DNA of 64,000 nt from Volutella citrinella (taxonomy: Eukaryota; Ascomycota; Sordariomycetes; Hypocreales; Nectriaceae): positions 434,001 to 498,000 of the forward strand of contig JAWZSP010000011.1 in assembly GCA_034401135.1 (NCBI GenBank), in the 5' to 3' direction. Every line of letters starts with the position of its first letter. Position 1 is the first letter of the stretch. The notes beneath the pieces were generated by a model. The model searched no databases and had not been told where the DNA came from. It saw only the letters and a list, made by a program, of their open reading frames with translations. Made by a program: the position numbers and the translations under genes. This document shows positions 26,000 through 44,434 of this stretch, in pieces.

Positions 26000-28900
26000 G
26001 ATTAATTAGGCTTTTACTAAGGCCTTTTATAAGATTTAGTAGTATTAGTAAATATATATTAGTAGGTTACTAAATAACCCTACTTAAGAGGACTTTATTA
26101 ACTTTATATAATAAAAGTATATCAACCCTTATATATATAAGCAATAGCTCTATAATAAGTTAGAAGGCTTTTAATAGAAAGAAGTTAAGAGACTTTCTGA
26201 ATTCTTTTAATTATAGAGCGCAATCTATACTTTATTAAGTACTAAAGGAATTAATATTAATACTATCTTAGCTTACTATTTTTACTATTACTTATAGAAG
26301 AACCTATAAGATAAGATAGACTGCTAGATAGTTAACCTTTATAAGGTTTATAATATTATTAATAAAGCTAAGAGGATATAGATATATCTTAACTATACCC
26401 ATACTAACTAGCTAGCAAACTACTATAAAAAAAATATAAATAAAATAAATCATATACTTATATACTTAAACTACTACCCTATAGATAATACTAATTATAA
26501 TACTAAAGGGAAAAGATAGTAGTTAAACTAATCTATACCTTAGTACTTAAGAAAAAGGAGTATAGAGAGCTCTATATAGAGTATTTATTATAAATATAGG
26601 CAGCCTAACTATAAGAAGGCCGACTGCTTTATATATAAATACTAAGATAGTACTATCTTAACCTTAGAGGCCCCTGCTAAACTGCTACCTAGGGCCTAAG
26701 TATAAGAAGTTTATTAGAAAATAGATATTAATAAGTTATTAGAAAATAAGTAGGTATTAGTAAAGAAGTAATAGTATTAGTACTTAAACTTACTATTATA
26801 CTTATTAGTAAGATTATTATAAGCTAAGCTATTATACTTTATAGCTATATAGAAAACTAAGTAGCTATAGATATAAATATAATAATATAGGTAGACTTTA
26901 TTAATAACTGCTTTATAATAAAGCTAGGTCTCTGACCGCTTTCTAATTATATAGTGCCTGAACTCTAAAATTAGTAGAGTATTATAAGATAAATAAAAAG
27001 CAAAGCCTATTAGCTAACCTTCTTCCTTATTAATAGCAGAGGCTAGCTAAGGAAAGTATATAGGACCTTTATTAAGATAGATAGGCTTAAGAAAGTAAGC
27101 AACTTATTAATATTAAATAACTTAATAAAGAAGAAAGGTATTTCTATAACTATAGCAACTTATTACTAGTTCTATAAACCTATCTCTATTATAGACCCTA
27201 AGTTAATTATATATAAGATTCTTAAAAAAGAATGTAAGGTATATATTCTCTATACTTATAGCACTATCTCTAGTAAAGACAGGGCAATTAAGTTCTTAGA
27301 TAGAAATAAGCGACTTAAGGATATAAGACTCCTAGCAGAGCTCTTAAGCTTTATAAGAGCTTTTAATAAAGACCTGGTGAAAGAGCTGCCTATCTTATAA
27401 GGTATAGAGTATATAATTAATATTATAAAGGGCAAGACCCCACTCTTTAAGCTATTATACCTACTAAATAAAAAGCAAGGTTAAGTACTTTATAAATATA
27501 TTACTAAGCACTTAGCCTCTAGTTATATTAAATACTCTAAGAGCTCTATAAGAGCCCTAATCTTATTTATACCTAAGAAAGATAGCACGCTCTGCTTATA
27601 TATAAATTACTATAGTCTTAATATAGTTATAATTAAGAATTACTACTCTCTCTTACTAATTAAAGACCTTCTAGACTATTTTTTAAAAGTAAAGTAGATT
27701 TCTACTATTAATATCTAAGATATATACTATTATATCTATATTAAAAAAAGCAACTATTAGAAAATAGCTTTCTGTATATAGTATAAATACTTTAAATATA
27801 TAATTATATTTTTTAGCTTAACTAATATACTAGCTACTTTCTAAGTATATATTTACTAAATACTTACTAAGTTATTAAATACTTACTATATTATATACCT
27901 TAATAATATTATTATCTACTTAGAAATTTAAGAAAAATATACCTAATACTTTTAAAAGGTTCTTTAAAAGCTATAAGCTATATAGCTCTATATAAAGCTA
28001 TTAAAGTATATATTTTATTAGTAAGAAGTAGACTTCCTTAGTTATTATATTACTTAAGAAAGGGTAGGTATAGAGCTAGAGTATATATAAGCTATTACTA
28101 AGTAGTAATTATTAGAATCTATCTAAGACCTTTAAGTCTTCTTAAGATTCTATAACTTTTACTAGAAATTTATCTTCTATTATTTAAAAATAGCCTTACT
28201 TTTAATAGACCTTCTAAAAAAAAGCTATAAGGGTAGGTAAATTAGGGAGTTTTAGTAAATAGAATGTACTATAGCTATATTTAGTAAGCTAAAAACTGCC
28301 TTTAGTTCTATAATTATTCTTTATTACTAAGATCCTATACTCCCTAGCTAAGTAGAGATAGATGCCTTTAACTAAGTAATTATAAGTATCCTAGCTTAAT
28401 AATATAATAACTAATAGTATCTAGTTATATACTTTTTATATAAATTATTAGAGATAGAAAATTAATAGGGCGCAGAGTAATAAGAGCTTTTTATAGTCCT
28501 TAAATTAATTAAGTATTAGAGTTACTACTTTTAGGGACTTTCTAAATATTTTATACTTCTTATTAATTATAAGGCGCTTTAGTAAATCTTTAAGGCTCTT
28601 ATAAAAGATTTTTAAAAAAGACTTATAAGATAGGTATATTAACTTTTAGAGTTTAATTTTAAAATATAGTACTACCTAAGAGTAAACAACTTTATAGATA
28701 GGCTATTTTATAAGCCTGACTATATAAAAAGTCAGCTTGTATATAGTAATATATTGCTAAGTTTAGTTTATAAGCTTAACTTAGTAAAAGACCTCTCTTT
28801 AGATATATAGTAAATAATTGTAAACTAAAAAAGAAAGTCTAAAGTATCTTAAGTATTTATCTAAGTAGTTAAGTCTAGCTTAATTAAACTAGCTATAGCC

Positions 28901-30600
28901 TAGATAACTGCAGCTCCTACTTTATAATAATACAGCCTATTCTATAAGCTATCTTTATATATAATATAAGTAATAGTATTTAAAGTGCAGACTAGAGTAT
29001 AGATAGGACTAGCTTAAAAAAGTCCTATTATAAAACCTGCTTCCTAGAGCAATACTTACTAAGAGTATATAAAGGACTTAAAGCAAGCTAGGGTTATTAT
29101 TCTAGACTAATATATCCTATGCCCTATTATAAAGGAACTTATAGAGAGCAAAATAGTATTTTTAGTATAGTTATTATATAAATTAAAAGTATTAATTAAA
29201 AAGCTATAGACTACTAACTTAGAATACTTAGTATATATAAATATAGTATATATTAATACTAGAAAGAAGAATTATATAGTAGACTGTATAAGTATATTAT
29301 TCTTTAAAAAGAGACTTATTATTTTAAAAGAGCTATCCTTATAGAGTAAGATCCTTTAGCACTACTATAATAACCCCTAGTCAGGGTATATAAGAGTAGT
29401 AAAGACTATAAAGCTGATCTTAAGAAAGTTCTATTAAGTTAACTTTATAGAAGATATAAGAGAGTATATTAAGACCTATAAGTATTACTAAAGTGTCTAT
29501 ATACTAAGGCATTACCTATATAAGAAGCTTTAACTATTACTACTATTATTATACTTATTCTAGGAAATCAGTATAGACTTTATTACAGGCTTGCTATAAA
29601 GTGCATAGCCTAAAGGCAAGCTAGCTAATATAATCCTTATAATTATCTATTAAATAACTAAGTATACTCTATTTATTCTAACTACTAAGCAACTTAATAT
29701 AGTATAGTTAGTAGGTATTTTATATAAGTATATTAAATATAAGTATAAGATGCTAGAAGGAATTATTAATAATAAAGATAAGCTCTTTATAAGCTAATTC
29801 TAAGCAGACTTAATTAAAGAGTAAGTAACTAGATAGCGCTTATTAATAATATACTACCTCTAGATAGATAGGTAGATAGAGCGGCTTAACTAGATACTAG
29901 AAAAGTATCTATAAATCTATACTAAGAGCTCTTTATAAAACTAGGCAGCTTACTTTTAAAAAGCAGAGTTTATATATAATAATAGTTATTATAGTATAAT
30001 TAGTATATCCTTAATAAAAGCATTAATAAAATACTATCTCTATATTATTAAATATATCTCTAAGTCTATAAAGACTAAGGTCTAAGGTATATAAAAGTAT
30101 ATTAAGAAGATTACAAACCTCTGCTAAAAAGCTGCTGAATTATAGAAGACAGTTATAGAGTTATAAGTAAAATATTATAACAGGCTGTATAAGAAGTAAA
30201 TCTTTAAAAAAAGCTAGATAGTCAGCCTCTTTATATAGAACTTCTATTTTAAATATAAGAAACTCGCACCTTATTTTATTAAAATAAAGGTTATTAAGTA
30301 TATTAGTAAGCAAGCTTATTAAATTAAATTACTTACTAAATACTAATATATATATAATATAGTATTAGTTATATTACTAGAACCTTAAACTAAAAAGGCA
30401 GTAAGAGAATAATTACTAATTAACTACTTTAACTTTAAAAAAAAGAAAGAAGAGTAGGAAGTTAAGGAGGTTATTATATATAAGACTAATAGAATATAGA
30501 CATTCTACTAAGTTAAGTAGTCAGGCTGGCTAATAGAATATAATACTTAAGAATTAGAGGAGCACCTTATAAATATAAAAAAGAAAGTCTAGGCCTATTA
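26000..30600 (+). pseudogene. Gag-pol relic of the degraded chromovirus
   Basis: These relics can be read directly in the plus strand. Zinc knuckle near 26588-26632: YYKYRQPNYKKADC, where Cys, Gly and His of a CX2CX4HX4C motif became Tyr, Arg, Asn and Tyr. RT near 27545-27930: PKKDSTL, then KIAF...YKYFKYIIIFFSLTN and YLNNIIIY, where YLDD became YLNN. Integrase near 29555-29600: ISIDFITGL preceded by TAG in place of Trp. A chromodomain near 30500-30600 resembles VKxSGWxIEYNTxELEEHL with stops at Trp/Gln positions. It is riddled with stops and is not functional. The chromodomain assigns it to the chromovirus clade of Ty3/gypsy. Confidence 0.78.
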
Positions 30601-32164
30601 TAAGTAGAAGAAGTATTATTATAAAAAGTAGGATAATAAAAATAAGCTAAGTACTTAATAAGTACTTATATATATTTATATTAAAAAATAAATTCCTTAA
30701 TATATACTAGCAGAGCCTTAGTTAAAATAAAAAATAAAAATAAAAGTAAAGGCTTAAAAAGTAAGTAACTGCTAAGAGTATAGCAGACCCTTGCTAATAG
30801 CAGCTTAGATTTAAATAAGTAAAAGCCTTATAAGGTAACTAAGAATAAAAAATAAAATTAAGAACTACTAGCTAAGTAAATAGTAATAGTTCTACTTAGC
30901 CTCGCCCTTTTTATTATTATTTCTATTATTCTTTAGACTATCTTAGTCTTAGTCTTAGGTATCCTAAAACTCTTAGTTAATATACTAATAGTTTGATAAA
31001 GGTATACTTTAATTTAGGTAATAAAGTAAGCAGAAGTATATATACTAGATAAGATATTTTAGTATAGTATAAGTAGTATATTAAGGTAATAATATATAGT
31101 ACTATACTAGGAGATTAGTTAGCTATTTATTATTATTAGCTCTCTCTTTTTCTACCCTAGTTCTTAAGATATTAATAAGTATATTAAGCTTAAACTTAAG
31201 CTTAGTAGTAGTAGTGTTATTCTAAATATATACTAGTTATATAGCCTCTGCTTAAAGTATAGTATTATCAGGCTAGATCTAGCTAGCTTAGAAAATCATA
31301 AAGTTAGAATATATTAGCCTAGGAGAATACTTAGTAAAGAGTAGCTAAAGGCTTGATATACTTATTATAAGACTATAATAATTATAAGCTTATAAATTAA
31401 GCTTAATTCTTAGAAAGACTACTATATAATAGTAGCCTTATCTTTAAGCTTCTCTTAGTAAGTATTTACTAGATTAGTAATATATTCCTAGAGGCGCTTT
31501 TATATATTAGTATAGGAGTTTATTATATTTAGTAAAGCAACTTAATACCTTAAGGTTAGGAAATCAGTATAGTCTTTAGTAAGAGTATAGTAATAGTTTA
31601 CCTTTTTTATAAGGTTCTAATACTATTAGGCTAGGCCTTAAAATTCTATTAGAATTTAAGAAATATTAAGTATACTTTAAAAAGAGATTATTAACTTACT
31701 ACTTAGCACTTAGATCAGTTTACTTTATAGAAAATATATCTCTACTTATAACTACCTTAGCAGTACTTAATCTAGATATTATAAAAGGTAGTAATTAGAT
31801 AGTTAAAGTATAGCAGCTTCTTAGTATATATATTAAAGAACTTTTTATTAGTAGAAAATTAAAAATTAAACAAAATATTCTAAATATAAAAAAGAACTGC
31901 TATCCTATCACTAAGTATTTAAAAAGAATTAATACTTTAGGAAAAAATAAAAAGCCCTGTAAAAAAAGAAAAATTAAAGATTATATAGCCCTAGTAGAAG
32001 ACTAGGTAAACAGTCAGTAAGGGCTTAGTAAGATAAAGAAGAACCCTATAAAAAAAAGTAAATAAGAAGTTATTAATATTCGCCCTAAAAGTAGGGCACC
32101 AAAGTACGCAGGCACTTGCTAAACGCTTAGACTACTAATACTAAAAGCAGAGTCAGGGCGCCCC

Positions 32165-32289
32165 TGTTTATAGTAAGGTAATTATAAGGGAAAACCTATA
32201 ATATATATAACCTAGACCAGCCCGTAGGCCATAGAGGCCGCAAAGGCTGCGCGCAGGTATGCTAGCCACTAGGCAAAAAACCACGCACT
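32165..32289 (+). repeat. Right LTR of the degraded chromovirus, 5' portion
   Basis: It starts TGTTTATAGTAAGG directly after GGGCGCCCC and continues into the sequence shared with 25356-25470. It is cut at 32289 by the 12.1-kb insertion. Its continuation is at 44435. Confidence 0.65.
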
Positions 32290-32624
32290 TTGTTGGTGAG
32301 AATGACAGGCCCAAACAAACACCAATAATTGTCAGTGTCCCCTGCAGAAACCTGCCGTAGGGTAACTGAACTTGGGCGAAAAGCGAAATTTTGCGTGACC
32401 TCCAGCAAGAGAACCTCGCAAGATAAACAAAATCTGAATTGACCAGCGATCTGATCAGACAGAAATGAAGGAGTCCCTGAACAGAAAAAGATTGAAAGAG
32501 GGGGAAAATTCTTGTTGATCTCAAGTACTGAGCGAACCTGCCCCTTTTAAGCTACTGACCCAAACGCCCAATTGACCAATCCAGCCCAACCACCAAAATG
32601 CCAATGTGATCCAGCTGCCACACA
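32290..32624 (-). repeat. 3' LTR of the intact retrotransposon
   Basis: 335 bp, apparently identical to 44095-44429. On the minus strand it begins TGTGTGGCAGC immediately after the polypurine tract. A TTAAAAG TATA-like box and CCAAT/ATTGG sequences lie in its U3 side. Confidence 0.9.
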
Positions 32625-32634
32625 CTCCTCCCCC
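32625..32634 (-). other. Polypurine tract
   Basis: The minus strand reads GGGGGAGGAG directly abutting the TGTGTGG start of the 3' LTR. This is the expected plus-strand primer of an LTR element and confirms the minus-strand orientation. Confidence 0.75.
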
Positions 32635-32703
32635 ATGGTCTGCATCATGTCCTCATGATCAGGCAGACCATGCCCCAAGCAAAGATATCCGAGCCAAGAC
32701 TAA

Positions 32704-35205
32704 CTACTGTCCACCAACATCCTCCATTTCCACATCCTCGTCTCCAGCGTCCTCCATGTCCTCGTCCTCGCCCGATCCCTGTTCCGCCACAACTTCCCGC
32801 AACACCGGATTCGCCTTGATCAGGTTGCGGCTGCGATACCGCTCCGCCCGGCTGGGCTTGGGCTTTGCCTCTTGGGTCGCCCACGGTCGCGTCGCTTCGT
32901 GGAAGATGAAGTCCCACTGACCAGGGTGAATCAGATTAGGCGGGACAAACGGCGCCCATGTGTATGTCGTAGTGCCAGGAACTGGGAACCCGTAGATGAT
33001 TCGATCCTCGACTGGGCACAGCGGTACCACTCCGTTCACAGCGCGCACCATCTCCTCAGCGGCCTGTCCAAGGGGCTGATCCTTCAGAGCCTCCTTGGTT
33101 GCCAGGGCGTCCTCTATGGTGCACGGCAACTTGAGTGCTCCGGCGATCTCGGGTGTGGAGGCGACGAGCTTCTTCAGAGGCACTTGGCCAGTCTCGGGGT
33201 CAATTCGCTGCCCATCTTCGTCCACCTCGACACGAGGTTCCCGTTTGACTCGGAAGCCTGGGCTCGACGCTCGTGATCCGGGTTGCGATGGCTCTGGTGT
33301 TGCCGTCAGTCTCTTCGGGGCTGGCGGTTGCGGCTGCCTGAAGAAGCTGTGGAAGGTGCTGTGCTTCATAACACCAGGCGGCGGAGGCTGATCCCACAGA
33401 TCCGACCCGGCTCGTGAGGGTGTTGAGCTACGCGACCTTCCTTCAGACCGATCGCGATCCTCCCCAACACCTGAGCGTGGTGTAGCTTGGCGCGTTCTGG
33501 TGCCAAACGTAGACACAGGCGGGGCCGGGGGCATGCCAGCAGCGGGCTCTCGACCAGCCGAGTCTGATCGCGACGGGGTTCGTCGATGGAAAGGGTTGGC
33601 CGGAAAGTAATGAGCGCTGGCTCGGTACCCGGGTGTAGGGCTGTCGGGCACATTCTCGACTGAGGGTTGAAGAGTCGCGATTGGCGGCTGGCTGTCGCCA
33701 AGAGGAGCTGGGGACTTCGCGGGAGGCGTTCCGATCAGATCAATAGAGCCCTGTCCGTCAGTGTTGAACTCCGATCGGGGCCTTTGCGGCACAGGGCCCT
33801 TCCAAGCAACGCCTCGGCTCTTCCACATGGCGAGTACCTCATCAGAAATCTTGGTGCGGACTCGAGCTTGCTGGTCAGCCGGCGGAGCGGAAGACCGCAG
33901 GAGATTGGCACTGCTTGGATTCGGTCTGATCAGGTGGAGCGACGTCGGAGAGAAGGCATAGCGAAGCTTGTCAACCTTGAAGCAGAGGTGGCCGCCAAAG
34001 CTGGTAAAGAAGCGTTCGTCTCCATGGATCTCAGAAACGTCGATGAACTTGGTGACATGGCGCATGTAAGGGATCGAGTAAGGAATCTGCTCCTTGGTGA
34101 TCTTCGGGAGTGTAAAGCCAAGATCCATAAGGGCCGCAGAGGTGAGCAGGGCGTAAACGATGTCGAGGCTCTCGTCGCGGTCGCCGGCAGCGTGATCGAC
34201 AGTAGCCAGGACCCAGTCTCGAAGTCGGAATCGGAATGCAGGCTCGTGCTTCGGGCGGGTGCGATCAATCGTCAAGATAGCCTTCTTTGTGTGTTTGTCG
34301 AAATCCTCCGGGCCATAGCCTCGCAGGCCGCGTAGTGTCTGGAAGAGGCAAAAGACACTAAGGAATCCACACTCAAAGCCGTTGGGCTGATCGGATAGAG
34401 GTGGGACAATCAGCTTGAAGTCGAAGGGCATTCCGAGAGAGGCAAGGGTCTCGCGCCAGACGTAGGCGAATTGGGCGGCATGAGGGCGGATCTGCTTTCT
34501 CATGGTGTCGAAGAAGTAAACGTGACCGACTACCCGATCGTACAGGAATGAACCCCAATGGGAACTGGCGAAGTTGACTAGACCAATGAAGAAAGGCTTG
34601 TCTCCCATGAGGTGGCGGACGCGGTCGGGGGCACCTAGGCCAGTGAAGGGGGTCTGCAAGGCTCGATTGGTACCGTGGGGGAGAAGCAAGTTGGAACCAG
34701 TTTCACCGATCTTGGGGTTTGGGAAAGGCACGTTCCCCTCGATTCCAAGCACACCATCGCCGAAGGCCACTAGGTCTTCCATGCCGTACGAAACCATGCG
34801 AACGAAGGCCATCAGCTCAGTGTCCGATGCCCAGCCTTTGTCATTCATTTTGCCGATCGCGCTCCAGAGGCTACGGCAGTGCTCTGCCCAAACGTTGTCG
34901 GCGTGTTTGATCTCCTTAAAGTGGTCTCGCATAGGCACTTTGTCGAAGAGGGGGATGGCTAGTTTTGGGTCTGCGATCTCGAGGGTATTGTCAACAGGGT
35001 CCCAAGTCTCGCGAGGTTTGAAGAAGGCAGGTTGTCGGCGGTAGAGGTCAGTGAGGTTGCCAAACCGTTCCTCGACAGAGGTTCTTCCTGCCGGATCTTC
35101 TCCTTGAACCGAACCGAAGAGGAGCAGGGGATCGGTGCTTGCGCTGTAGCACCCTTGGGAGTTCTCCCACGCTGGGTTGACTTTCATGCCTCGGGTTCGC
35201 GACAT
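32704..35205 (-). CDS. Ulp1/C48-like cysteine protease carried by the retrotransposon
   Basis: A single uninterrupted 833-codon frame. The N-terminal half contains the C48 catalytic pattern in order: SSHWGSFLYD (His about 216), YFFDTM (Asp about 233) and SDQPNGFECGFLSVF (Gln about 273, Cys about 279). This matches the HW...D...Q-x-NG-x-xCG arrangement of SUMO/Ulp1 proteases. The C-terminal half is Pro/Ser/Arg-rich and probably disordered, ending in an acidic tail (GEDEDMEDAGDEDVEMEDVG). It lies downstream of integrase, on the same strand as gag-pol, and ends about 70 bp before the polypurine tract. It could process the long polyprotein or remove SUMO from silencing factors; both are inference. 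Ulp1-like genes are known cargo of some DNA transposons but are unusual in LTR elements. Confidence 0.75.
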   Translation of the reverse strand: MSRTRGMKVNPAWENSQGCYSASTDPLLLFGSVQGEDPAGRTSVEERFGNLTDLYRRQPAFFKPRETWDPVDNTLEIADPKLAIPLFDKVPMRDHFKEIKHADNVWAEHCRSLWSAIGKMNDKGWASDTELMAFVRMVSYGMEDLVAFGDGVLGIEGNVPFPNPKIGETGSNLLLPHGTNRALQTPFTGLGAPDRVRHLMGDKPFFIGLVNFASSHWGSFLYDRVVGHVYFFDTMRKQIRPHAAQFAYVWRETLASLGMPFDFKLIVPPLSDQPNGFECGFLSVFCLFQTLRGLRGYGPEDFDKHTKKAILTIDRTRPKHEPAFRFRLRDWVLATVDHAAGDRDESLDIVYALLTSAALMDLGFTLPKITKEQIPYSIPYMRHVTKFIDVSEIHGDERFFTSFGGHLCFKVDKLRYAFSPTSLHLIRPNPSSANLLRSSAPPADQQARVRTKISDEVLAMWKSRGVAWKGPVPQRPRSEFNTDGQGSIDLIGTPPAKSPAPLGDSQPPIATLQPSVENVPDSPTPGYRASAHYFPANPFHRRTPSRSDSAGREPAAGMPPAPPVSTFGTRTRQATPRSGVGEDRDRSEGRSRSSTPSRAGSDLWDQPPPPGVMKHSTFHSFFRQPQPPAPKRLTATPEPSQPGSRASSPGFRVKREPRVEVDEDGQRIDPETGQVPLKKLVASTPEIAGALKLPCTIEDALATKEALKDQPLGQAAEEMVRAVNGVVPLCPVEDRIIYGFPVPGTTTYTWAPFVPPNLIHPGQWDFIFHEATRPWATQEAKPKPSRAERYRSRNLIKANPVLREVVAEQGSGEDEDMEDAGDEDVEMEDVGGQ

Positions 35206-35537
35206 TTCGTCAGGCTTGGTGTAGCGGGTTCAAGGGCTCGATGATGGGTCTGATCAGGCAGAATGATGATGAAAATGAGGGAGAAAGAGAGGCAGTCTGT
35301 GTGCGTTGAGGAGTTGAAATGTTTGTTGCTGGAGAGGTGGTTTGCTTCTTCGCGCCGGGAAGAGAGCCGTCCTTTGAGCAGACTTATTGCCGTGATTCAC
35401 TGCCACTAGCCGCGCACCTGCCAGATCCGGCTCTTTGTCATTCATGCCTTTACCCTCTCTGCCCTTTCTCTGCTCTTCTCTTCTCTTTTTCCCTTCATCA
35501 TCAACTTCATCTTTGTTGTCGCGACGGCTTTGTCACG
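35206..35537. promoter_or_regulatory. Internal divergent promoter region of the retrotransposon
   Basis: 332 bp lie between the Ulp1-like start (minus) and the antisense gene start (plus). The last 90 bases before ATG 35538 are pyrimidine-rich (CTCTTCTCTTTTTCCC type), as in fungal core promoters. The divergent layout implies that cargo genes have their own promoters instead of relying on the LTR. Confidence 0.5.
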
Positions 35538-36568
35538 ATGTCTTCGAACCGCAGCTCAGAGGCGCCCGAGGCTCCCCCTCGCCCGCGTATTGTTGTTGAT
35601 CCTTATGCCCTTGAAGAATTGCGTACCAAAGAGCGCAAAGATTTGCCGAACATCATCAAAGCTGTGAAGCCAGGGCTGCACGCTAAAGATTTCCGACCGA
35701 CTCATCGCCTTAACACTCGAGGCAATCGAACAGAGTTCATGACCGCCAAGGATACCGGCTTCAACAGCGCCAGCAATGTAATGCCCTTGTCTGATCATCC
35801 TGACCTTGTTGTGGCTAACCATTTTTCCTTTGGCAGACTTTCAGTTTCTTCGACGTGTGGATCTGCTCCCGCCTTGGCCTCGATCGCGCTGGTCAACCGA
35901 TGTTTTGTCGTCTCGCTTTCCGAGGAGCTGACGACGAGGAGGTTCTCGAAAGCGCCTCTGGGTTCTGGCAGACCTCTATTGGCGACTCGTCCGACCTCCG
36001 TCATGCCGTTCGATACACCGCGAAGACTCTCCCGAATCCCGTCTACATCCCCGCCGAGTACGCCCATCCGAAGGGGTACTTCTTCGCTCAACTGAATGCC
36101 CGCCCAAATCACGTCAAGGCGCTCTTCATCGCGTGTTTCGGTCAGATCAACCCGCTGACTTGTCGCCACTGTGCCTCGACTTTCATGACGACTGTCACAT
36201 CCTTCGGCGACCACATACTCTGGCCATTTCACGCTTGCATGTCGATTGCCGACTTCCACGGGGGTTCTTGCGCTAATTGCGTCTGGCGCGAGTGCCCTGA
36301 TTGCAGCTGGTCCTTTATGCCTGGCTACCTCCCCACTCGCCGAGACGAAGGCCCTCTGCTTTATCCTCTGCGTGGTCGGGACACAATTCGTGAGGATGGT
36401 CATAACCGCTACTATGAGGTCGATCCCATGAACCCTTCGAGTTGCCCTGAGATCACTTGTAATCTTCCCGCACTTGAGCCGATCCCTGAGGAGGATATGC
36501 AAGCGCGGCTTGAAACCGCTAGGGAGCGTTCTTGGGATGATTATATGACTGGGTTCCGCCATCTGTAA
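35538..36568 (+). CDS. Antisense, spliced Cys-rich (DUF3716-like) protein in the retrotransposon
   Basis: Exon 1 (35538-35777) and exon 2 (35837-36568) with a 59-bp GT-AG intron (35778-35836; CTAAC branch, GCAG acceptor) give 323 residues. The C-terminal half has TCRHCASTF, a histidine/cysteine HACMS, then GGSCANCVWRECPDCSW. This resembles the GACANC-x-C zinc-binding pattern of the fungal DUF3716 domain. The N-terminal part carries PDP-type basic residues and FFDVWICSRLG. The function is unknown. It is transcribed opposite to the retroelement genome, and its intron would be in antisense orientation in genomic RNA. The start ATG follows a pyrimidine-rich leader; in-frame codons upstream to 35319 look like promoter sequence. 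Confidence 0.7.
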
Positions 36569-37196
36569 GGGCTCTAGCAGTGGGACTGTTGCTTTTGGGT
36601 TGCTGGACATGGGATTTTCTTTGGGTTGGAGCTGGTTTGCTGTGTCCGATCGGGCCCATCCGCTTTTGTTCTTTGCGTCTGTCTTCATTCTGGGTCTTCA
36701 GGTTGCTTAAGTAGTGAGCGTCTTCGCTCTAAGAATGGAAAATTTTCTTCCCGGCACTCTGTGGTCTCCAGGCGTCGTTTCCTTTGTGCCCGTTCTGATC
36801 GTTCCAATATGTGTCTTCGCTGTGCGTCACATCTTGTCTAACTGATCGTCTTGGACTGTCGAGTTCCGCGCCTGAGCGTGTCTCACAGCGTCCTGGCTGG
36901 GGTCGGCTCGTGTCTTGGACAGTCTTGGGGCGTGTCCGGCGCTGTCGAGCCGCTTGTCTTAACGTGTCGCCGACAGTGTCCTCTGGTCGATCTGGCTTGT
37001 CTCGTCTCGTCCCAGCGGTTGTGGCCAGTTGTCGTCGTGTGTCAAAATTTTTCTGGGTAGGTCACCCAAGTCTTTTGGTGTGTGTTTTGGTCGCGTCTTG
37101 CCATCACACCCATCCTCCCCGGTCAGCCACCACAGCTCCCGCACGCGTGAGCTGGCCTGTTCCTGTCTGATCGGGCAGAATCCTCCCCATCTCCGC
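36569..37196. other. Convergent intergenic region inside the retrotransposon
   Basis: About 630 bp between the stop of the antisense gene and the stop of gag-pol. It is T-rich on the plus strand. Small ORFs are present on the plus strand but overlap each other and lack motifs. It probably holds the two 3' ends. Confidence 0.4.
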
Positions 37197-40100
37197 TTAG
37201 AGTTTGGAGTATTGGTCTCGCGCCGCTTTTGGCATCGTCGGCAGTTGGACCTCTACCCTATAACCAGGGCCTTTTCTTGGAGGAGGCATCCTTTCTTCCT
37301 CATCCACAACCCCAGACTCGTCACTAAATGACGAGTCGCTTGCATCCGACTCATCATCACTGGATTCTAGAAGGCTTCCTTCCTCTTCCGAGAGGCTGTC
37401 GCTTTCTTTGTCCTGGTTTGTTTCGAGATTTGCAAGTTCTTCCTCGAGATTAAACCACCAGCCACTCTCATCTTGGATAAACTTCTTCAAATGTTCTCCA
37501 TGGGTCGTGGTGGCCAGTTTGATCCCGTCAAGTGTTTCCAGCTGGTAGCTTGGCGATCCCTGGCTGTGCCTGTGTATTCTGAAGGGGCCCTGCCAGCGCG
37601 GTCGCATTTTGGCCTCTGTCGACATGTCCTGGGATCTTGGCACATCGTACTTCAGCACTAGGTCTCCTTCCACCAACGGTTCTTTCCTGAGTGAGTGCAA
37701 ATTGGTCTTGTCGGTCCGATCAGCCAGTTTCCTCCTAAATGCTGTTGCTTTTCGGATGGCTTCATTAACATCCTCCTCTTTCCTCTGGAGGACCTTGATC
37801 CTTCGCAGCAGCAAATCTTCAGAGCTCCTGACCTCATCCCAATTCACAGTCCTCCAGGTAGGGATCTTGACTTCGATCGGTAGTCTAGGTTCCCATCCAT
37901 GAAGCAGGTAGAAGGCTGATCGTCCGTGGGATGCTCTGATCGCGGATCTGTCGGCTAAGAGGACTTCCTCCAGCTGGTCAACCCAGCACCCACCCAGCTT
38001 CTTGAGCGCATTTGTCAGGATGGAGTGCCCTCCTTCCACAATGCCATTAGCCTTCGGGTTATAGGCTGACGTCCAGATCACCCTGATCCCATAGTCCTCA
38101 AGTACTCGCTTGAAGTCCTTCTTCGTTTCCTTCCCATTGTCGACAACTGCCTCTTGAGGCATGCCATACCTAAATATGACACGCTTGACGAAGGCCTTGA
38201 ACGTTTTCACTGTGACTTTGCTCACGGCTTCGGCCTCAATCCACCCCATCAGATCACATCGTCCCTCGTAAAGGAACTTCTTTCCTTTTCGTGGAGGCAT
38301 GTACTGGGCGTCGAAGTGGATCTTCTCCATTGGCCTCCCTGGCGTCGAAAAGCCGGCCTTTTCCCTTGGTCGCCTGGGATCATGCTCTTGGCATGTCGCA
38401 CAGGCTGTCACTAATGAATATGCGTCTGATCGCATCGACTTCCAGTAGTACCTCCCTGCTGCTGAGTTGAAGGTCGCCTCTCGTCCTTTGTGCCCATTTT
38501 CAGTATGGCAACATCGCAGGATCTCCCTCTGAGTCCCCCCGTCGTCAACCACTAGGACTGGGTCCGCATAAAGCCCGCCTGGCCTCTTCCATAAGTAACG
38601 CTTCTTTACCATGAACTTCGGGGCATTCCGCCTTATCTTGCGGTAGGCTTCAGGTGAAATTCCGGCGGGTCTTTCCAGCGTTTGAAGGTACCTCCCCATC
38701 ACCTGGCATTCAGCTCCATAGCTCTGGTCCAGCTCCTTACTGTCGTCATCCAGGGTGATCGTATTAAGGTGAAGGTCGATAAACTGGTCCATGTCTCCTT
38801 CGACGTCCTGATCCATCTGGTCAGATGGACCGGGCTCCTTTCGGGACAGCCCGTCAGCCGCGCCATTCTTCTTTCCTGGGACATGCTTTGCAGTGAAGTC
38901 GAAAAGCATGATATAGCTTAGCCATCGGTTGATCAGGGCCCCGGGGACATCGTCTGCTCGCCCGTTCAACTGGTGAACCAGGACCTGGGAATCCGTTTCC
39001 AGGGTAAAAGGGACTCCATAGAGGTAGCCTCTCAGTCTCCGAAAGGCATGCAGAACTCCTTTGCATTCGCGCTTTGTCGCATCGTACCCTTGTTCTGCAG
39101 TCGTCCATACTCCTGATTCGTATCGAGCTGGCTTGCGCTTACCGTCCACAACTTGTAGGATCAGGGCTCCCCATCCACGAAGGCTGGCATCTACCATGAG
39201 TATAATTTCACCGGCTCCTTCGCTGTAATCCAGCGTGATCAGGATGGGGGCAGTGACCAATCTCTCTTTGAGGACCTTCATAGCATCTTCCTGCTCAGGG
39301 CCCCAAACCCATTCGGCATCCTTCTTCAAGAGCTTAGTGAGAGGTATCGCGATCCAGGCGTAGCCCATCACCCAGATCCGGAAGAACCCTGTGACTCCTA
39401 GGAATCCTCGTACTTGTGTAATGTCTTCGCAGGCTTTCCACTCCAGGATCTTGATGATCTTTTCCTCAGAGGGTTTCCGCCCGTTGTTGCCACACAGGTA
39501 TCCCACCAGAATTGCTGTTTCCTGACAGAACTGGGATTTTGCTGCTGAGATCGTGCAGCCAGAGAGCTCCACATTAAGAAGGGCCTTGTCCAGGTTGACC
39601 AGATGCTCCATGACGTATCGCCTTACGCCAGGAAGGCTCTCCTCCCCGCCGTAGTCAGTCGCTGGACCTCTAACTGCAATGTCGTCAAGGTAGGCCCGGC
39701 ATACGTCAGGGATCAGATCAAACAGAATCCTGGTCATAATCCTTGAGAACTGAGCTACCGAGTTGGTGGCTCCCTGTGGGAGTCGACACACCCGCAGTAG
39801 CCCCAGAGGTGTCATGAACGACGTCATATCCCGGCTCTTCTCATCCAAGGGGACCTGATCATAACCGGAAAAGAAATCCAGGACGCTGGTGATCTTGCAT
39901 TGCGCAAAGTCGGCTGAGAATTCATCGGTATTAGGCGGACTCATGGCGTCTTTGATCGTAAACGCATTGTACTTCGTCGCCGAATTGATCAGTCGCAGGC
40001 CGCCGTCTTTCTTCTGAACCAGGAACCAAGGGTTGCGGTACGACCCATGACTTTCCTCCAGGACCCCTCGTTCCAGTCGGGCCCTCAAGAGGTCGATCAC

Positions 40101-43100
40101 TTTATTAGCCATGCCCTTCGGGATCGGTATAGTACCAGCCTGGAACGCCCGGTGAGGGATCACTTTGATCGTCTGTGGCGGCGCGACCAGAGGGTCCAGC
40201 AATCCGCTCTCTGTAAAGTCCCAGGCTAGGGCCGCCTCACGGTTGTACAGCACCTCTGTTAGAACTTCCCGTTCTTGCCGGGTAAGGGTGCCGTCGACTT
40301 GATCAAGCAGATTCTTGAGTCTCTCTGCTGTCAGCCGGGTGCCCTTCTCGATTTTGGAGAACTTTGGTGTTAGCCCTGGGTACTTGGGTGGACCCTGGAA
40401 GTTCTTCTGGGCCTCAGCCAACTTCTTCTCCTTCCACTGCGGGTCTCCTTCGGGGGTTGAGCCATCAGGTGGCACGTCCTCCAGAGGTCTGATCTTATCG
40501 GCTTTGCGCTTGTACATCGTGTTGGCTTTGATGTCTTCGCCCGGTTGCTCTGCGCAGGTCCTCTTCTGGTCGCTGAACATCTGCGTCTGCTCGTCCATAG
40601 CAGCTTGCACCATCGTTCGATAACAGCCCCAGATCTCCTTCTTGATCAGTTTGACAATCTCGCAGGCCGTATCCTGTCCGATCTTTCTCAAAGTGCTGCG
40701 ATCATCGTCTCCTTCGAGGGTGACTTTCTCCTCCCCGCTCGGATCCAGAGTGCAGGCGTTCGTCTTTGGGTTCTGCTGGCAGTCCTCTCTCCCAAAACGC
40801 GGCTGGTCGTATCGTATGTTGCCGGCTGCTGCCGTCACGACTCTGATCTCTCCGAGTTGGCATCGGATGAGTAGGTTCCCATCGCGAGACGTGTGATCGA
40901 ACGAGACCTTACATGTTCGGATGAAGGGCATTCCTAGCAAAAGGGGCACACTGACCCCGTCCGGGACGACGTACATCCTCTGCTCCACCCACACATTCCC
41001 TAAGTAGAGTTTTGTTAGACACTCACCTACCATCTTGACCTTTTCCCCGTTATAGGCCGTGGTTGTGGCCTTAGCGTACCCGACCTTCAGACCGGAAGCC
41101 TTGGCCACTGATTCAGAGATCAGGTTCCCTTCTGCCCCGGTGTCCACCAGCCCTTCGATAGCTGGTCCGTCTGCTCGATCAAGCCGAACTCTGATTCGTG
41201 GTAACTCTTGGCAGTGGGAGATCAATCTCGCGCTTACTGCGCTTTCCAGGTTGATTGAGACTTGATGGGTTCGCAGCTCCTCACGCCACTCCGACTTGTC
41301 CGTCATCGACTGGCCGAGCAGATCTGCGATCTGGTTGTCCGGAGCGATCTTGACGTTGTTGACCTTGCATTTCTCCTTCATGGCTTCAAAGTAGGCGTCT
41401 GAGAAGTTTTGCGGTTGGGCTTCCTCCATTACAGCATAAGCCGCCATGCGGGTTTGATCGCGGCCAGCCCCTATGCTAGATACTGGCTCGATGTACTGGG
41501 TGTTCGTTACTTCGTCAACGACCTCCCCAATGTCTCGGTGAAATCCCTCTGCAAATTGAGGGTCGAGCTTCATGATGTCCTTTAAGGAGACGTTCATCTT
41601 CCGATTAGCGGCTTCAGCGCGCAGTCTCTGCCTGATCCGATCTTTGCTGTCATCAGGGGTGGTCCTAGGATTCGTGTTCCTGTCGTCGCTGGGTTGGCGG
41701 CCGGACTGCGAGCGCTTCATCGAGGCGTCCTCTTGGGGATCATCCCGTTGGTCTTGAGGATGTTGATGGGAACCGATCGCCTTCCCATCGTTACTCCTCA
41801 GGCGCTTATTGGCCGCATTGTTGACTCGAATGCCCTTCTCCGCCACATCAGGGCCCGGGCCGTCTTCATCCACTGTGAGGAAATTGGTCCTTGTCTGGCT
41901 AGAAAACGTCCCTTGGGCTAACCGATCGTTCCGATCAGGGTGAAGCTGAATCCGGGGGTTGAGTCGGGAGCCCTCATTCTTCTTCATGAATCTCTCGAAG
42001 AGGTCCTTCTCCTCGGGTGTCTCAACATACCCCCCAGGCGGCTTCCAGAAATGTGTAAGGGTCTCCCCGAGACTCCATGCCTCGGTACCCGGGAAACGGT
42101 TCGACCACAGGACCATTCCTCGTCTGATCCCGCCCGCGCTGTGGCGGAAGATTCCGACCAGGAATGGGGGCACAAAGTACTCACCAAGCCAGACAGCCCC
42201 CGCGCTTGGTTCATAATGGGTAATATGCTCCTTCTTACTGTCCTTTCGCAGCTTCAGGCAATCTCTCAGAGCATGATCCTCATCGCCGCAGTAATAACAC
42301 CGATACTGCTTGAACTCGCCTGCTACCATTGTCGCGATGTCTTGGTCGTTCCTCTCGATGATCCTCTCAATTGTCTGGCAGTCGTGGATTTCCTCAACAG
42401 CGGCCGTGTTCGTCTGGATATTCCGGATCCGCGCACCTTGTTGCAAGACGCGTCTTTTCTCGCGGGTCCCCTCTTGGTCCTTAAGGACTGCGACCTGGAT
42501 GCTCAGCTCCTCGATCTGACGGGTCAGATCGGCTAGCGCTGACTCGGCGCCGCTCGCTTCCTCATTCCTGTGCTGGAAACTGACCCTTTTGTCCTTCGGG
42601 AGCGAGTGCCGGGCTCTGTCTGGCTGGTCGGCGGGGTCGCCTACCTTGCTTCGCGACGCGCCACCCCCTTCAGAGTCACTGTTCCACTCTGATCGGCCCG
42701 ATCTCTCAGTGATCCCTTCAACCTGGAGGATCGTGTTGATGCTGTCCGACACCGTTTTGTAGGGCTTCTCTAGGATGGTGTCTGGGGTGCAGCTGAGTTG
42801 CCTGCACAGTTCCTTCTTCCATTGGTCAGGGAGCCCTTTATATAAGGTGTAAGCGAAGGTCGTGTTGGTTGCCCAATCATTTGGGTAAACCGCCTTGATC
42901 AGGTAGGCGTGCTTGTCCATCCACCTTCTCATGCCTTGGACATCCCCCAGTTTGATGTCGGGGTTTGCCATGTTCATGAGTTGGTGAATCGGTGCTCCAT
43001 CCAGCTCATCATCATAGCTCTTGAACCGTTTGATCAGCATGCTCTTGGCTTCTTCCCAAGAGCAGCCTTCCACAGTTCTCCTTACTTGCTTCATCAAGGA

Positions 43101-43799
43101 TCTTCCGGTGACCCTTAAATCCACGTCCTCCTTCATCTGGCTCTCAGAGAATCCTTGAGCCCTCATGTGATCCTCGTAACGTTTAAGGAAGAAGGTGATC
43201 CCATCCCCATCAAAGTAATATTGATCAGGGAAGGGACGGTACTCGCTGCTCGCTGGGTGATCCATCTTGGAGCTAAACAGCGGAGTGGTTACTGCTTCTT
43301 CGTAGTCTGGAGGGGTCGCAGATGTGAACGGTTTTCCCGTGCAAGATGCCTTGCTAAGAGGTTGAACAGTCTGATCAATTCCGTGGGATTCCCCGAGGGT
43401 TGAAAGAATATCTGGTGACTGAATAGGCTCAGTATGAGAAGTTGTATGAGAAGTCCCTTCTGCTGGAAGGTCCGCAGCAGGCATGTGCTTGGTTGCTTCG
43501 TGCTTTCTCTTGCGTGTCATGGTGATGATTCCATCCCATGGGATCTGTTCGAATATAAGTGCGTAAGCCAGTAGCAGCAGAACTGTCGTCAAGCTGACTC
43601 TTGCAGCCACGCAGATTACCACTAATCTGGTTATCGCGGTGAGTTTTCCAATCGGTATGGAGACCGTGATCGGGAATTCGACCTTCGGCTCAAAACATAG
43701 CGTGTCCATTCCATAATTGGCCTGATCGGGCCGAATCTCGGGGCAGGATTTGTTATGTCTTTGCCCTGGCCAGGCGACTGGCGATGCTTTGTCTCGCAT
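37197..43799 (-). CDS. Gag-Pol polyprotein (Gag, protease, RT, RNase H, integrase)
   Basis: One uninterrupted ORF of 2,200 codons. A better start may be ATG 43520 (ACCATGA, MTRKRKHE), since the first 93 residues look like leader. Gag has a retrotransposon Gag fold (FDGDGITFFLKRYEDHM...) and a CX2CX4HX4C knuckle CYYCGDEDHALRDC near 42260-42300. Protease: VDTGAEGNLIS near 41140, then LLLGMPFI. RT: VQKKDGGLRLI, FSGYDQVPLD, LPQGATNS and AYLDDIA near 39690. RNase H: MVDASLRGWG and LETDSQ, ending AADGLSRK. Integrase: H-H-C-C (CHTENGH...CATCQEH), then IHFDAQY, VVDNGKE and NGIVEGGH as the D,D,E triad. Domain order RT-RH-IN places it in Ty3/gypsy. There is no frameshift between gag and pol and no obvious chromodomain. 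All catalytic residues checked are intact. Confidence 0.92.
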   Translation of the reverse strand: MRDKASPVAWPGQRHNKSCPEIRPDQANYGMDTLCFEPKVEFPITVSIPIGKLTAITRLVVICVAARVSLTTVLLLLAYALIFEQIPWDGIITMTRKRKHEATKHMPAADLPAEGTSHTTSHTEPIQSPDILSTLGESHGIDQTVQPLSKASCTGKPFTSATPPDYEEAVTTPLFSSKMDHPASSEYRPFPDQYYFDGDGITFFLKRYEDHMRAQGFSESQMKEDVDLRVTGRSLMKQVRRTVEGCSWEEAKSMLIKRFKSYDDELDGAPIHQLMNMANPDIKLGDVQGMRRWMDKHAYLIKAVYPNDWATNTTFAYTLYKGLPDQWKKELCRQLSCTPDTILEKPYKTVSDSINTILQVEGITERSGRSEWNSDSEGGGASRSKVGDPADQPDRARHSLPKDKRVSFQHRNEEASGAESALADLTRQIEELSIQVAVLKDQEGTREKRRVLQQGARIRNIQTNTAAVEEIHDCQTIERIIERNDQDIATMVAGEFKQYRCYYCGDEDHALRDCLKLRKDSKKEHITHYEPSAGAVWLGEYFVPPFLVGIFRHSAGGIRRGMVLWSNRFPGTEAWSLGETLTHFWKPPGGYVETPEEKDLFERFMKKNEGSRLNPRIQLHPDRNDRLAQGTFSSQTRTNFLTVDEDGPGPDVAEKGIRVNNAANKRLRSNDGKAIGSHQHPQDQRDDPQEDASMKRSQSGRQPSDDRNTNPRTTPDDSKDRIRQRLRAEAANRKMNVSLKDIMKLDPQFAEGFHRDIGEVVDEVTNTQYIEPVSSIGAGRDQTRMAAYAVMEEAQPQNFSDAYFEAMKEKCKVNNVKIAPDNQIADLLGQSMTDKSEWREELRTHQVSINLESAVSARLISHCQELPRIRVRLDRADGPAIEGLVDTGAEGNLISESVAKASGLKVGYAKATTTAYNGEKVKMVGECLTKLYLGNVWVEQRMYVVPDGVSVPLLLGMPFIRTCKVSFDHTSRDGNLLIRCQLGEIRVVTAAAGNIRYDQPRFGREDCQQNPKTNACTLDPSGEEKVTLEGDDDRSTLRKIGQDTACEIVKLIKKEIWGCYRTMVQAAMDEQTQMFSDQKRTCAEQPGEDIKANTMYKRKADKIRPLEDVPPDGSTPEGDPQWKEKKLAEAQKNFQGPPKYPGLTPKFSKIEKGTRLTAERLKNLLDQVDGTLTRQEREVLTEVLYNREAALAWDFTESGLLDPLVAPPQTIKVIPHRAFQAGTIPIPKGMANKVIDLLRARLERGVLEESHGSYRNPWFLVQKKDGGLRLINSATKYNAFTIKDAMSPPNTDEFSADFAQCKITSVLDFFSGYDQVPLDEKSRDMTSFMTPLGLLRVCRLPQGATNSVAQFSRIMTRILFDLIPDVCRAYLDDIAVRGPATDYGGEESLPGVRRYVMEHLVNLDKALLNVELSGCTISAAKSQFCQETAILVGYLCGNNGRKPSEEKIIKILEWKACEDITQVRGFLGVTGFFRIWVMGYAWIAIPLTKLLKKDAEWVWGPEQEDAMKVLKERLVTAPILITLDYSEGAGEIILMVDASLRGWGALILQVVDGKRKPARYESGVWTTAEQGYDATKRECKGVLHAFRRLRGYLYGVPFTLETDSQVLVHQLNGRADDVPGALINRWLSYIMLFDFTAKHVPGKKNGAADGLSRKEPGPSDQMDQDVEGDMDQFIDLHLNTITLDDDSKELDQSYGAECQVMGRYLQTLERPAGISPEAYRKIRRNAPKFMVKKRYLWKRPGGLYADPVLVVDDGGTQREILRCCHTENGHKGREATFNSAAGRYYWKSMRSDAYSLVTACATCQEHDPRRPREKAGFSTPGRPMEKIHFDAQYMPPRKGKKFLYEGRCDLMGWIEAEAVSKVTVKTFKAFVKRVIFRYGMPQEAVVDNGKETKKDFKRVLEDYGIRVIWTSAYNPKANGIVEGGHSILTNALKKLGGCWVDQLEEVLLADRSAIRASHGRSAFYLLHGWEPRLPIEVKIPTWRTVNWDEVRSSEDLLLRRIKVLQRKEEDVNEAIRKATAFRRKLADRTDKTNLHSLRKEPLVEGDLVLKYDVPRSQDMSTEAKMRPRWQGPFRIHRHSQGSPSYQLETLDGIKLATTTHGEHLKKFIQDESGWWFNLEEELANLETNQDKESDSLSEEEGSLLESSDDESDASDSSFSDESGVVDEEERMPPPRKGPGYRVEVQLPTMPKAARDQYSKL

Positions 43800-44094
43800 C
43801 TCGGGTCGTCTTCCGCTCCCTTCTCAGGTCCGCCGATTGAAGTGTCCACCCAATTGGAATGATGATTCGGCTTCGATCATGAAGAATCCTCCATCCGATC
43901 TTTGCTCGTAGTTGAATCGTTTTTCGGGGTTCGCGCGACCGCCCACTCTTGGAGCAGTCGCCTCGCTTTCCGACTTCGAATCAGGGATTGCAGGTTCTGG
44001 TGCAGCGTAGAAGTGCTCCTCTGGTCGAGCCGTCTGATCATTCAGATCTCTGGCCTCTGACAAAGGAATACCCCCCCCACCGTGACCTCCAAAT
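43800..44094 (-). other. 5' leader of the retrotransposon
   Basis: About 295 bp between the 5' LTR and the first gag ATG, containing the primer-binding site and probably the packaging region. A 129-codon minus ORF (43824-44213) runs through it into the LTR and has no motif. Confidence 0.5.
44074..44091 (-). other. Putative tRNA primer-binding site
   Basis: Three bases after the 5' LTR the minus strand reads TGGAGGTCACGGTGGGGG. It starts with TGG, as expected for pairing to a tRNA 3' CCA end. Which tRNA primes was not determined. Confidence 0.55.
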
Positions 44095-44429
44095 TTGTTG
44101 GTGAGAATGACAGGCCCAAACAAACACCAATAATTGTCAGTGTCCCCTGCAGAAACCTGCCGTAGGGTAACTGAACTTGGGCGAAAAGCGAAATTTTGCG
44201 TGACCTCCAGCAAGAGAACCTCGCAAGATAAACAAAATCTGAATTGACCAGCGATCTGATCAGACAGAAATGAAGGAGTCCCTGAACAGAAAAAGATTGA
44301 AAGAGGGGGAAAATTCTTGTTGATCTCAAGTACTGAGCGAACCTGCCCCTTTTAAGCTACTGACCCAAACGCCCAATTGACCAATCCAGCCCAACCACCA
44401 AAATGCCAATGTGATCCAGCTGCCACACA
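44095..44429 (-). repeat. 5' LTR of the intact retrotransposon
   Basis: 335 bp. The minus-strand U3 contains GATTGGTCAATTGG (CCAAT-type boxes) and GCTTAAAAGGGG near 44346-44357 as a TATA-like promoter element that would drive genomic RNA. The right boundary is followed by the target duplication GCACT. Confidence 0.9.
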
Positions 44430-44434
44430 GCACT

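What the first reader, a model, noticed from the sequence alone, without database searches (positions are those of the whole stretch)
32290..44429. Recent Ty3/gypsy-type retrotransposon that carries a two-gene cargo block
Seen: matching 335-bp LTRs, 5-bp target duplication GCACT, primer-binding site, polypurine tract and a complete Gag-Pol ORF. Between integrase and the 3' LTR lie about 4.5 kb holding a sense Ulp1-like protease gene and an antisense spliced gene. Known: Ty3 elements usually have only gag-pol; a few plant and fungal elements carry one extra ORF. Inference: this may be an undescribed family of cargo-bearing LTR elements in ascomycetes whose cargo helps processing, silencing escape or spread.
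Basis: partly seen in the sequence, partly recalled or inferred. Interest (0 to 1): 0.88.

Follow-up and report, generated by a model that had tools for sequence, protein, structure and literature searches.

The report
Fungal retrotransposon with SUMO-protease-like passenger gene
A young, multi-copy jumping element in a filamentous fungus carries, besides its own copying machinery, a back-to-back pair of extra genes (a SUMO-protease-like enzyme and a small zinc-finger-like protein) that several older, mutated copies carry too, so the pair looks like a lasting part of the element rather than an accident.

Summary
The element lies on the minus strand: identical 336-bp LTRs, a 4-bp (not 5-bp) target duplication GCAC, a primer site matching 18 nt of the genome's tRNA-Arg(ACG), one 2200-aa Gag-Pol ORF, then a divergent gene pair: an 833-aa Ulp1/C48-like protease (sense) and a DUF3716-like gene (antisense, one predicted intron), with 332 bp between their starts. 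The genome has seven full-length copies, varying at only two sites; all carry both cargo genes. Of six RIP-mutated gag-pol loci found (a lower bound), five keep the protease and four both genes, in the same order. So this is an element family, not one copy with a capture. A RIP-filtered comparison with one older copy gives nonsynonymous/synonymous 0.41 in the protease gene (p = 0.0006).

Antisense genes in fungal Ty3 elements are known (Boty brtn), and Ulp1 domains are known in DNA transposons. My paper searches found no fungal LTR element described with a Ulp1 gene or this divergent pair. Best mechanism (inferred): the protease strips SUMO from host factors that repress LTR transcription or integration; the antisense gene is an element-coded nuclear regulator. 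New variant of a known kind. Function, expression and other species were not testable.

The parts
32289..32624 (-). 3' LTR (336 bp, in element sense TGTGTGG...CCAACAAA)
   Evidence: identical to the other LTR over 336 bp; terminal T shared by all 7 full-length copies
32285..32288 (.). target-site duplication GCAC, left copy
   Evidence: matches 44430-44433
44430..44433 (.). target-site duplication GCAC, right copy
32625..32634 (-). polypurine tract GGGGGAGGAG directly before the 3' LTR (element sense)
   Evidence: sequence
32704..35205 (-). Ulp1/C48-like cysteine protease gene, 833 aa, one uninterrupted frame; catalytic-type residues H216, D233, Q273, C279; long C-terminal half with acidic tail
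   Evidence: 100% identical in 7 copies
35206..35537 (.). 332-bp intergenic region between the two divergent cargo genes, pyrimidine-rich before both starts: proposed bidirectional promoter (inferred)
   Evidence: best 50-nt windows 94% pyrimidine (plus gene) and 78% (minus gene)
35538..36568 (+). antisense DUF3716-like gene, 323 aa after removal of one predicted intron; exon 1 35538-35777, exon 2 35837-36568
   Evidence: PF12511 E=4.4e-4, 20.6 bits, cut-off 22; exon 2 100% identical in 7 copies
35778..35836 (+). predicted 59-nt intron (GTAATG...CTAAC...CAG) in the antisense gene
   Evidence: sequence and frames; found by eye, donor not in the consensus list; no RNA evidence
37197..43799 (-). 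Gag-Pol single ORF, 2200 aa: CCHC at aa 501, DTG aa 886, YLDD aa 1370, RNase H, H2C2, rve, GPF aa 2071; no chromodomain found
44074..44091 (-). primer-binding site, 18 nt complementary to the 3' end of tRNA-Arg(ACG) with CCA added
44094..44429 (-). 5' LTR (336 bp)

Best explanation
This is a currently or very recently mobile Ty3/Gypsy-type LTR retrotransposon family of a filamentous fungus that carries, as a lasting part of its genome, a divergently oriented accessory gene pair between integrase and the 3' LTR. Shown: the anatomy, seven near-identical copies, and the same order in several RIP-mutated relatives. Inferred: both accessory genes are transcribed from the shared 332-bp region, so neither depends on the LTR transcript. 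The intron survives because it is antisense to the genomic RNA, from which it cannot be spliced. The Ulp1-like protein is most likely a SUMO (or SUMO-like) deconjugase acting on host nuclear factors, lowering SUMO-dependent repression of LTR transcription or easing integration. The DUF3716-like protein is most likely a nuclear zinc-binding regulator working with it. Likelihoods: anatomy and lasting family about 0.95; host-directed deSUMOylation about 0.35.
For: Seven full-length copies (C11 window, C9, C7, C3, C2 twice, C1) vary only at 36933 (T/C) and by one C in the run at 44078. All seven encode the 2200-aa Gag-Pol, the 833-aa protease and exon 2 of the antisense gene at 100% identity. Of 6 relic gag-pol loci scored, 5 have the protease and 4 both cargo genes, in the same order; at 6 of 6 relic loci with the antisense gene it lies beside a protease match on the opposite strand. 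Protease: the best hit among 177,635 PDB sequences is yeast Ulp1 (1euv, E=0.0041 for the 160-aa domain), with H, D, Q and C aligned (alignment). Selection: against the C11 190-kb relic, changes that RIP cannot make are 41 nonsynonymous and 28 synonymous over the 1995 aligned bp of the protease gene, ratio per opportunity 0.41, Fisher p=0.0006; transversions are 4/711 in the catalytic part against 41/1284 in the tail, p=5e-5. Mechanistic precedent: in yeast, loss of Ulp1 tethering at the nuclear pore raises Ty1 transcription and retrotransposition, and the authors favour decreased SUMOylation of unknown factors as the cause (PMC8585004 abstract and passages).
Against: No RNA, protein or enzyme data. 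The C48 assignment is weak by score: PF02902 12.4 bits against a cut-off of 20.7; an unrelated chain, 6ub8, follows Ulp1 at E=0.045; the AlphaFold model without an alignment was useless (pLDDT 33); genome searches with PF02902 and PF12511 rang at 4 host places each and not at the element. PF12511 is just below its cut-off on the element's protein (20.6 against 22). The gag-pol search scored only 21 of 49 candidates, so relic loci without cargo may have been missed; 4 of 9 relic protease loci have no scored Gag-Pol match, and 1 of 6 relic gag-pol loci has no cargo match. The selection test rests on one diverged relic (2,001 bp, without the first 168 codons); in its catalytic part alone the changes are 5 nonsynonymous and 6 synonymous, and transversions alone give no signal there (ratio 0.69, p=0.56); the changes in the tail are clustered. 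The C3 relic differs almost only by RIP and says nothing about selection. The antisense exon has too few non-RIP changes (2, both nonsynonymous) for a test. In the yeast paper a ulp1 mutant also raises Ty1, so the direction of an extra Ulp1's effect cannot be read straight off it.
Confidence: 0.45

Rival explanations
1. The protease is an accessory maturation enzyme that cuts the element's own Gag or Gag-Pol, as adenovirus-type proteases do in other mobile elements (that comparison is recalled), and the antisense gene is structural.
For: C48-type catalytic residues; the gene is in sense orientation with gag-pol and recurs with it.
Against: Gag-Pol already encodes an aspartic protease (PF13650 E=4e-9), and Ty3 elements manage with that alone (recalled). 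No cleavage site can be pointed to.
Confidence: 0.15
2. The antisense transcription matters more than the proteins: the antisense RNA dampens or tunes the element through double-stranded RNA, and the coding capacity is a relic.
For: Antisense orientation; dsRNA regulation is proposed for antisense ORFs of LTR elements in the review PMC7264820 (passages).
Against: Exon 2 aligns without an indel over 751 bp in the old C11 relic. The protease gene shows a non-RIP N/S ratio of 0.41. There is no transcript data either way.
Confidence: 0.12
3. Passive hitchhiking: an ancestral element trapped a two-gene host segment (or a DNA transposon with a Ulp1 gene), and the segment is merely carried along by a recent burst.
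For: Ulp1 genes are known in several kinds of DNA transposon (PMC2836005, PMC3212892); the pair has its own apparent promoter region; the selection signal is modest and from one comparison.
Against: The pair is present in old RIP-mutated relatives with the order kept. Changes that RIP cannot make are depleted at nonsynonymous sites and in the catalytic part. No intact host homologue of either protein turned up: the 22 and 14 matches are intact element copies or stop-bearing relics.
Confidence: 0.2
4. A single chimeric locus or an assembly artefact.
For: None found.
Against: Seven copies on six contigs with different flanks; six of seven have matching 4-bp duplications.
Confidence: 0.01

Closest known systems
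Boty / Boty-like Ty3/Gypsy elements of Botrytis cinerea with the antisense gene brtn (Zhao et al. 2011; paper not held, seen only as cited in passages of PMC8365987, PMC7264820, PMC4227169; BRTN named in a passage of PMC5987419)
   Same: Fungal Ty3/Gypsy element with an extra antisense gene between pol and the 3' LTR.
   Different: PMC4227169 reports a chromodomain in the Gag-Pol and a 5-bp target duplication at a Boty solo LTR; none of the passages seen mentions a Ulp1-like gene. Here there is no detectable chromodomain, a 4-bp duplication, a second (sense) protease gene and a DUF3716-like antisense product. Homology to BRTN could not be tested. PMC8365987 mentions further additional ORFs in other B. 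cinerea elements whose kind I did not see.
Plant Ty3/Gypsy and other LTR elements with antisense ORFs (Grande, RIRE2, Retand, PvRetro13; review PMC7264820, passages seen)
   Same: Additional ORF antisense between pol and the 3' LTR, in most copies; for Grande, a promoter upstream of the antisense gene.
   Different: Those passages describe antisense ORFs of mostly unknown kind (an SMC domain in PvRetro13) and no paired sense protease gene.
Ulp1-carrying DNA transposons: Ginger1 and Mutator-type elements (PMC2836005, passages seen), oomycete CryptonF and CryptonS elements (PMC3212892, passages seen)
   Same: A mobile element carrying a Ulp1/C48-type protease.
   Different: Those are DNA transposons (in Ginger1 the domain is fused to the transposase). 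Here it is a separate gene in an LTR retrotransposon.
Bdelloid rotifer LTR elements with captured ORFs (PMC5408684, two passages seen)
   Same: LTR elements with a third ORF, some of enzymatic kind (DEDDy, GDSL).
   Different: The word Ulp1 does not occur in that paper's main text; different host kingdom.

Membership tests
Ty3/Gypsy (Metaviridae) LTR retrotransposon | Pol order protease - RT - RNase H - integrase | tested here: met
   PR 877-959, RT 1262-1431, RH 1499-1630, H2C2 1757-1808, rve 1822-1915 (rve 0.6 bits below its cut-off)
Ty3/Gypsy (Metaviridae) LTR retrotransposon | LTRs, tRNA primer site, polypurine tract, short target duplication | tested here: met
Chromovirus branch of Ty3/Gypsy | chromodomain at the end of integrase | tested here: not met
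   Searches (E up to 1, whole protein; E up to 10, C-terminal 301 aa): no Chromo match, only SH3_Tf2-1 below cut-off
Boty-like elements with brtn | extra antisense gene between pol and 3' LTR | tested here: met
Boty-like elements with brtn | chromodomain and 5-bp target duplication (as stated in PMC4227169) | tested here: not met
Boty-like elements with brtn | antisense product homologous to BRTN | not testable with these tools
   BRTN sequence not held; protein database off
Ulp1 / C48 cysteine protease | catalytic His, Asp, Gln, Cys in order | tested here: met
   H216, D233, Q273, C279 align with yeast Ulp1 (1euv); that these are the catalytic residues of Ulp1 is recalled
Ulp1 / C48 cysteine protease | score above the Pfam PF02902 cut-off | tested here: not met
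   12.4 bits, cut-off 20.7
Ulp1 / C48 cysteine protease | deSUMOylating activity | not testable with these tools
   needs the enzyme
DUF3716 (PF12511) | score above the Pfam cut-off | tested here: inconclusive
   E=4.4e-4, 20.6 bits, cut-off 22, profile positions 1-56 of 59; the six-frame genome search did not list the element

The most novel reading that the evidence does not exclude
A fungal LTR retrotransposon encodes its own SUMO-pathway countermeasure: a divergently transcribed Ulp1-like protease and DUF3716-like nuclear protein that together relieve SUMO-dependent repression of the element, kept under selection since before the RIP-killed generations of the family.
Probability: 0.3. Interest if true: 0.78.

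Novelty: new variant of a known kind. Interest (0 to 1): 0.56.

Why it matters
Accessory genes of LTR elements have mostly unknown functions. Here one of them resembles an enzyme of a pathway (SUMO) already shown in yeast to control Ty transcription (PMC8585004), so the idea that an LTR element manipulates that pathway becomes directly testable. The same genome also holds young intact copies and RIP-killed relatives, a good natural experiment on accessory-gene retention and on how a family escapes RIP.

Tried and rejected
AlphaFold on the N-terminal 392 aa of the protease (from the second Met region): no usable model; no fold search was run on it. Pfam on the whole protease (E up to 1) and on its N-terminal 348 aa (E up to 10) listed no C48; only the 160-aa domain did, weakly. 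PHROGs: one chance-level match, E=0.24. Rfam and ARAGORN on the window: nothing. tRNA primer: the patterns with a perfect GGTCACG 5' arm found nothing because the acceptor stem is GGTCGCG; the T-arm pattern then found six exact sites, of which two were fetched and are tRNA-Arg(ACG). Self-priming: no exact stretch of 6 nt or more in the LTR complements the first 30 nt of the leader. C3 relic for selection: rejected because it differs by RIP-type changes almost only. Its gag-pol alignment held 18 transversions and 6 anti-RIP transitions; 23 of these 24 lie at the alignment edge, 41699-41782, and I dropped them, leaving one, 40402. Paper searches: DUF3716 in no paper; no fungal LTR element with Ulp1 in the listings (20 of 35 listed; 20 of 331; 5 of 5; 15 of 45; 0; 12 of 12); passages of ten papers were read, none as a whole. 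Zhao 2011 is not held.
Full report
What is there. The element occupies 32289-44429 and runs on the minus strand. Its LTRs are identical over 336 bp. Of the six copies with a duplication (GCAC, TTAG, GTAT, ATAT, GTAT, CTAC), three have a fifth base that does not match. The seventh copy (C2 at 4.55 Mb) has TTAG on one side and ATAC on the other, so it has no duplication, probably through recombination. Gag-Pol is one 2200-aa frame with protease, RT, RNase H and integrase in Ty3 order and a CCHC motif. No chromodomain was found. The primer-binding site 44074-44091 is an 18-nt complement of the CCA-ended 3' end of tRNA-Arg(ACG); six exact T-arm sites exist in the genome, and the two I fetched are tRNA-Arg(ACG) genes by ARAGORN, and tRNAs by Rfam.

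The cargo. Downstream of Gag-Pol lie two divergent genes. The antisense gene (35538-36568, plus strand) has a predicted 59-nt intron with a CTAAC branch point. I found it by eye; its donor GTAATG is not of the consensus used in my scan, and without RNA the alternative of a shorter, unspliced ORF in the second frame stays open. The spliced product matches DUF3716 (E=4.4e-4, 20.6 bits, slightly below the cut-off of 22). The sense gene (35205-32704) encodes 833 aa. Its residues 176-335 find yeast Ulp1 first among the PDB sequences (E=0.0041), followed by an unrelated chain at 0.045; in the whole-protein alignment H, D, Q and C line up. PF02902 scores 12.4 bits, below its cut-off of 20.7. The starts are separated by 332 bp that are pyrimidine-rich upstream of both genes, which I read as a shared promoter (inference). 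An intron in a retroelement gene is expected to persist only if it is antisense to the genomic RNA; the sense cargo gene is one open frame. Both facts fit repeated passage through RNA (inference).

Copies. A search of the 45.1-Mb genome with the LTR gives 31 matches. Fourteen belong to seven full-length copies on six contigs, three are identical LTRs without a partner at element distance (read as solo LTRs), and one more differs by one base; all four have 4-bp duplications (TTAC, ATAG, ATAG, ACAC). The other 13 are more diverged or RIP-mutated. The full-length copies vary only by T/C at 36933 (C in C9, C7, C1) and by one C in the run at 44078 (missing in C7 and C1). All seven encode the three proteins at 100% identity (for the antisense gene exon 2 was searched, exon 1 is covered by the DNA comparison). 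The burst is therefore very recent.

Older relatives. The protease query finds 15 further matches at nine loci, all with stops; Gag-Pol finds 13 relic matches at six loci plus three matches (26-30% identity) that I take for other Ty3-type elements; the antisense exon finds seven relic matches at six loci. The Gag-Pol search scored 21 of 49 candidates, so its counts are lower bounds. Five of the six relic Gag-Pol loci (C3 at 0.52-0.54 Mb, C11 at 0.19-0.20 Mb, C9 at 2.39-2.41 Mb, C9 at 1.75-1.76 Mb, C4 at 1.94 Mb) have the protease; all but C9 at 1.75 Mb also have the antisense gene. The sixth (C7 at 3.59 Mb) is a fragment of about 320 codons of gag without a cargo match. Four relic protease loci (C7 4.24 Mb, C3 1.49 Mb, C5 1.36 Mb, C11 0.206 Mb) have no scored Gag-Pol match. 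At all six loci with the antisense gene it lies beside a protease match on the opposite strand. The three other Ty3-type elements have no protease match nearby. Neither PF02902 nor PF12511 rings at the element in six-frame genome searches, but each finds four host places elsewhere.

RIP and selection. The C3 relic differs from the window element in 4408 aligned bp of cargo and LTR by 1162 RIP-type changes and only 2 others, with no indel; CpA and CpG cytosines are hit at 0.85 and 0.77, CpC and CpT at 0.13 and 0.15. It is essentially the same element, killed by RIP, and carries no selection signal. The C11 relic is older: over 1995 bp of the protease gene it has 45 transversions, 24 anti-RIP transitions and one 6-base indel. 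Among these changes, which RIP of that copy cannot make, 41 are nonsynonymous and 28 synonymous, 0.41 per opportunity, p=0.0006. Transversions are 4/711 in the catalytic part and 41/1284 in the tail, p=5e-5. Within the catalytic part alone the numbers are small (5 nonsynonymous, 6 synonymous), and the tail's changes cluster near 33000-33300 and 33400-33700, so recombination between lineages could play a part. Changes after RIP should be neutral and dilute the signal, so I read it as constraint before RIP. This is one comparison only. The antisense exon 2 shows 2 transversions in 732 bp, both nonsynonymous, too few to test.

Mechanism. In yeast the Nup84 complex restrains Ty1 transcription by tethering Ulp1; the authors conclude that decreased SUMOylation of yet unknown factors activates Ty1, though a ulp1 mutant also raises Ty1 RNA (PMC8585004, abstract and passages). 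Since Pol has its own aspartic protease, a separate Ulp1-like enzyme is more likely aimed at the host. I propose that it removes SUMO from repressors or repair factors near the element, with the DUF3716-like protein as a nuclear partner. The SUMO link of LTR elements has that precedent; everything specific to this element is inferred. For Ulp1 and OTU domains of DNA transposons a role in transposition has been suggested (PMC2836005, passages); oomycete Cryptons carry C48 peptidases too (PMC3212892, passages).

Known or new. An antisense extra gene in a fungal Ty3 element is known from Boty (brtn), seen here as cited or named in four papers. This element shares the position and strand of that gene but fails two features given for Boty in PMC4227169 (chromodomain, 5-bp duplication), and homology to BRTN was not testable. 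PMC8365987 mentions further additional ORFs in other B. cinerea elements whose kind I did not see. Paper searches listed no paper that I could recognise as describing a fungal LTR element with a Ulp1 gene; several listings were cut, and most subscription papers are not in that library, so this is weak evidence of absence. I rate it a new variant of a known kind.

Noticed in passing
G000:C10:588711-589044 (L022) and C10:759867-760200 (L021): Two diverged solo LTRs in opposite orientation have swapped 4-bp flanks (CTGT/CTAT and CTAT/CTGT), the mark of a 171-kb inversion by recombination between two LTRs.
   Followed up: partly
window 44094-44429 and 32289-32624, offset 220 in the LTR in element sense: An 11-nt direct repeat of the primer-binding site (TGGAGGTCACG) lies inside the LTR, a second partial match to the tRNA-Arg 3' end.
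   Followed up: no
window 25001-32000 and 57001-64000: AT-rich blocks (GC 0.23-0.32 and 0.05-0.09), probably RIP-mutated repeats; the second is unusually poor in GC.
   Followed up: no
loci L001-L030: All 11 recent insertions (7 full-length, 4 solo) have at least one 1-kb flank below 0.33 GC (19 of 22 flanks), against 0 of the 5 older solo LTRs L019-L023 and 4 of the 7 other diverged LTRs L024-L030; in the window 28% of 103 500-bp bins outside the element are that AT-rich. Suggests insertion into, or survival in, AT-rich DNA although no chromodomain is detectable.
   Followed up: partly
G000:C2:4547605-4559744: Full-length copy without matching target duplication and with very different flank composition (GC 0.10 and 0.49): probably a recombinant between two copies.
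   Followed up: no
G000:C3:519455-539902: RIP-mutated copy split by about 8 kb of inserted sequence inside gag-pol (coordinates).
   Followed up: no
G000:C7:1407863-1410285: Four sites identical to the tRNA-Arg(ACG) T arm within 2.4 kb: probably a small tRNA-Arg gene cluster.
   Followed up: no
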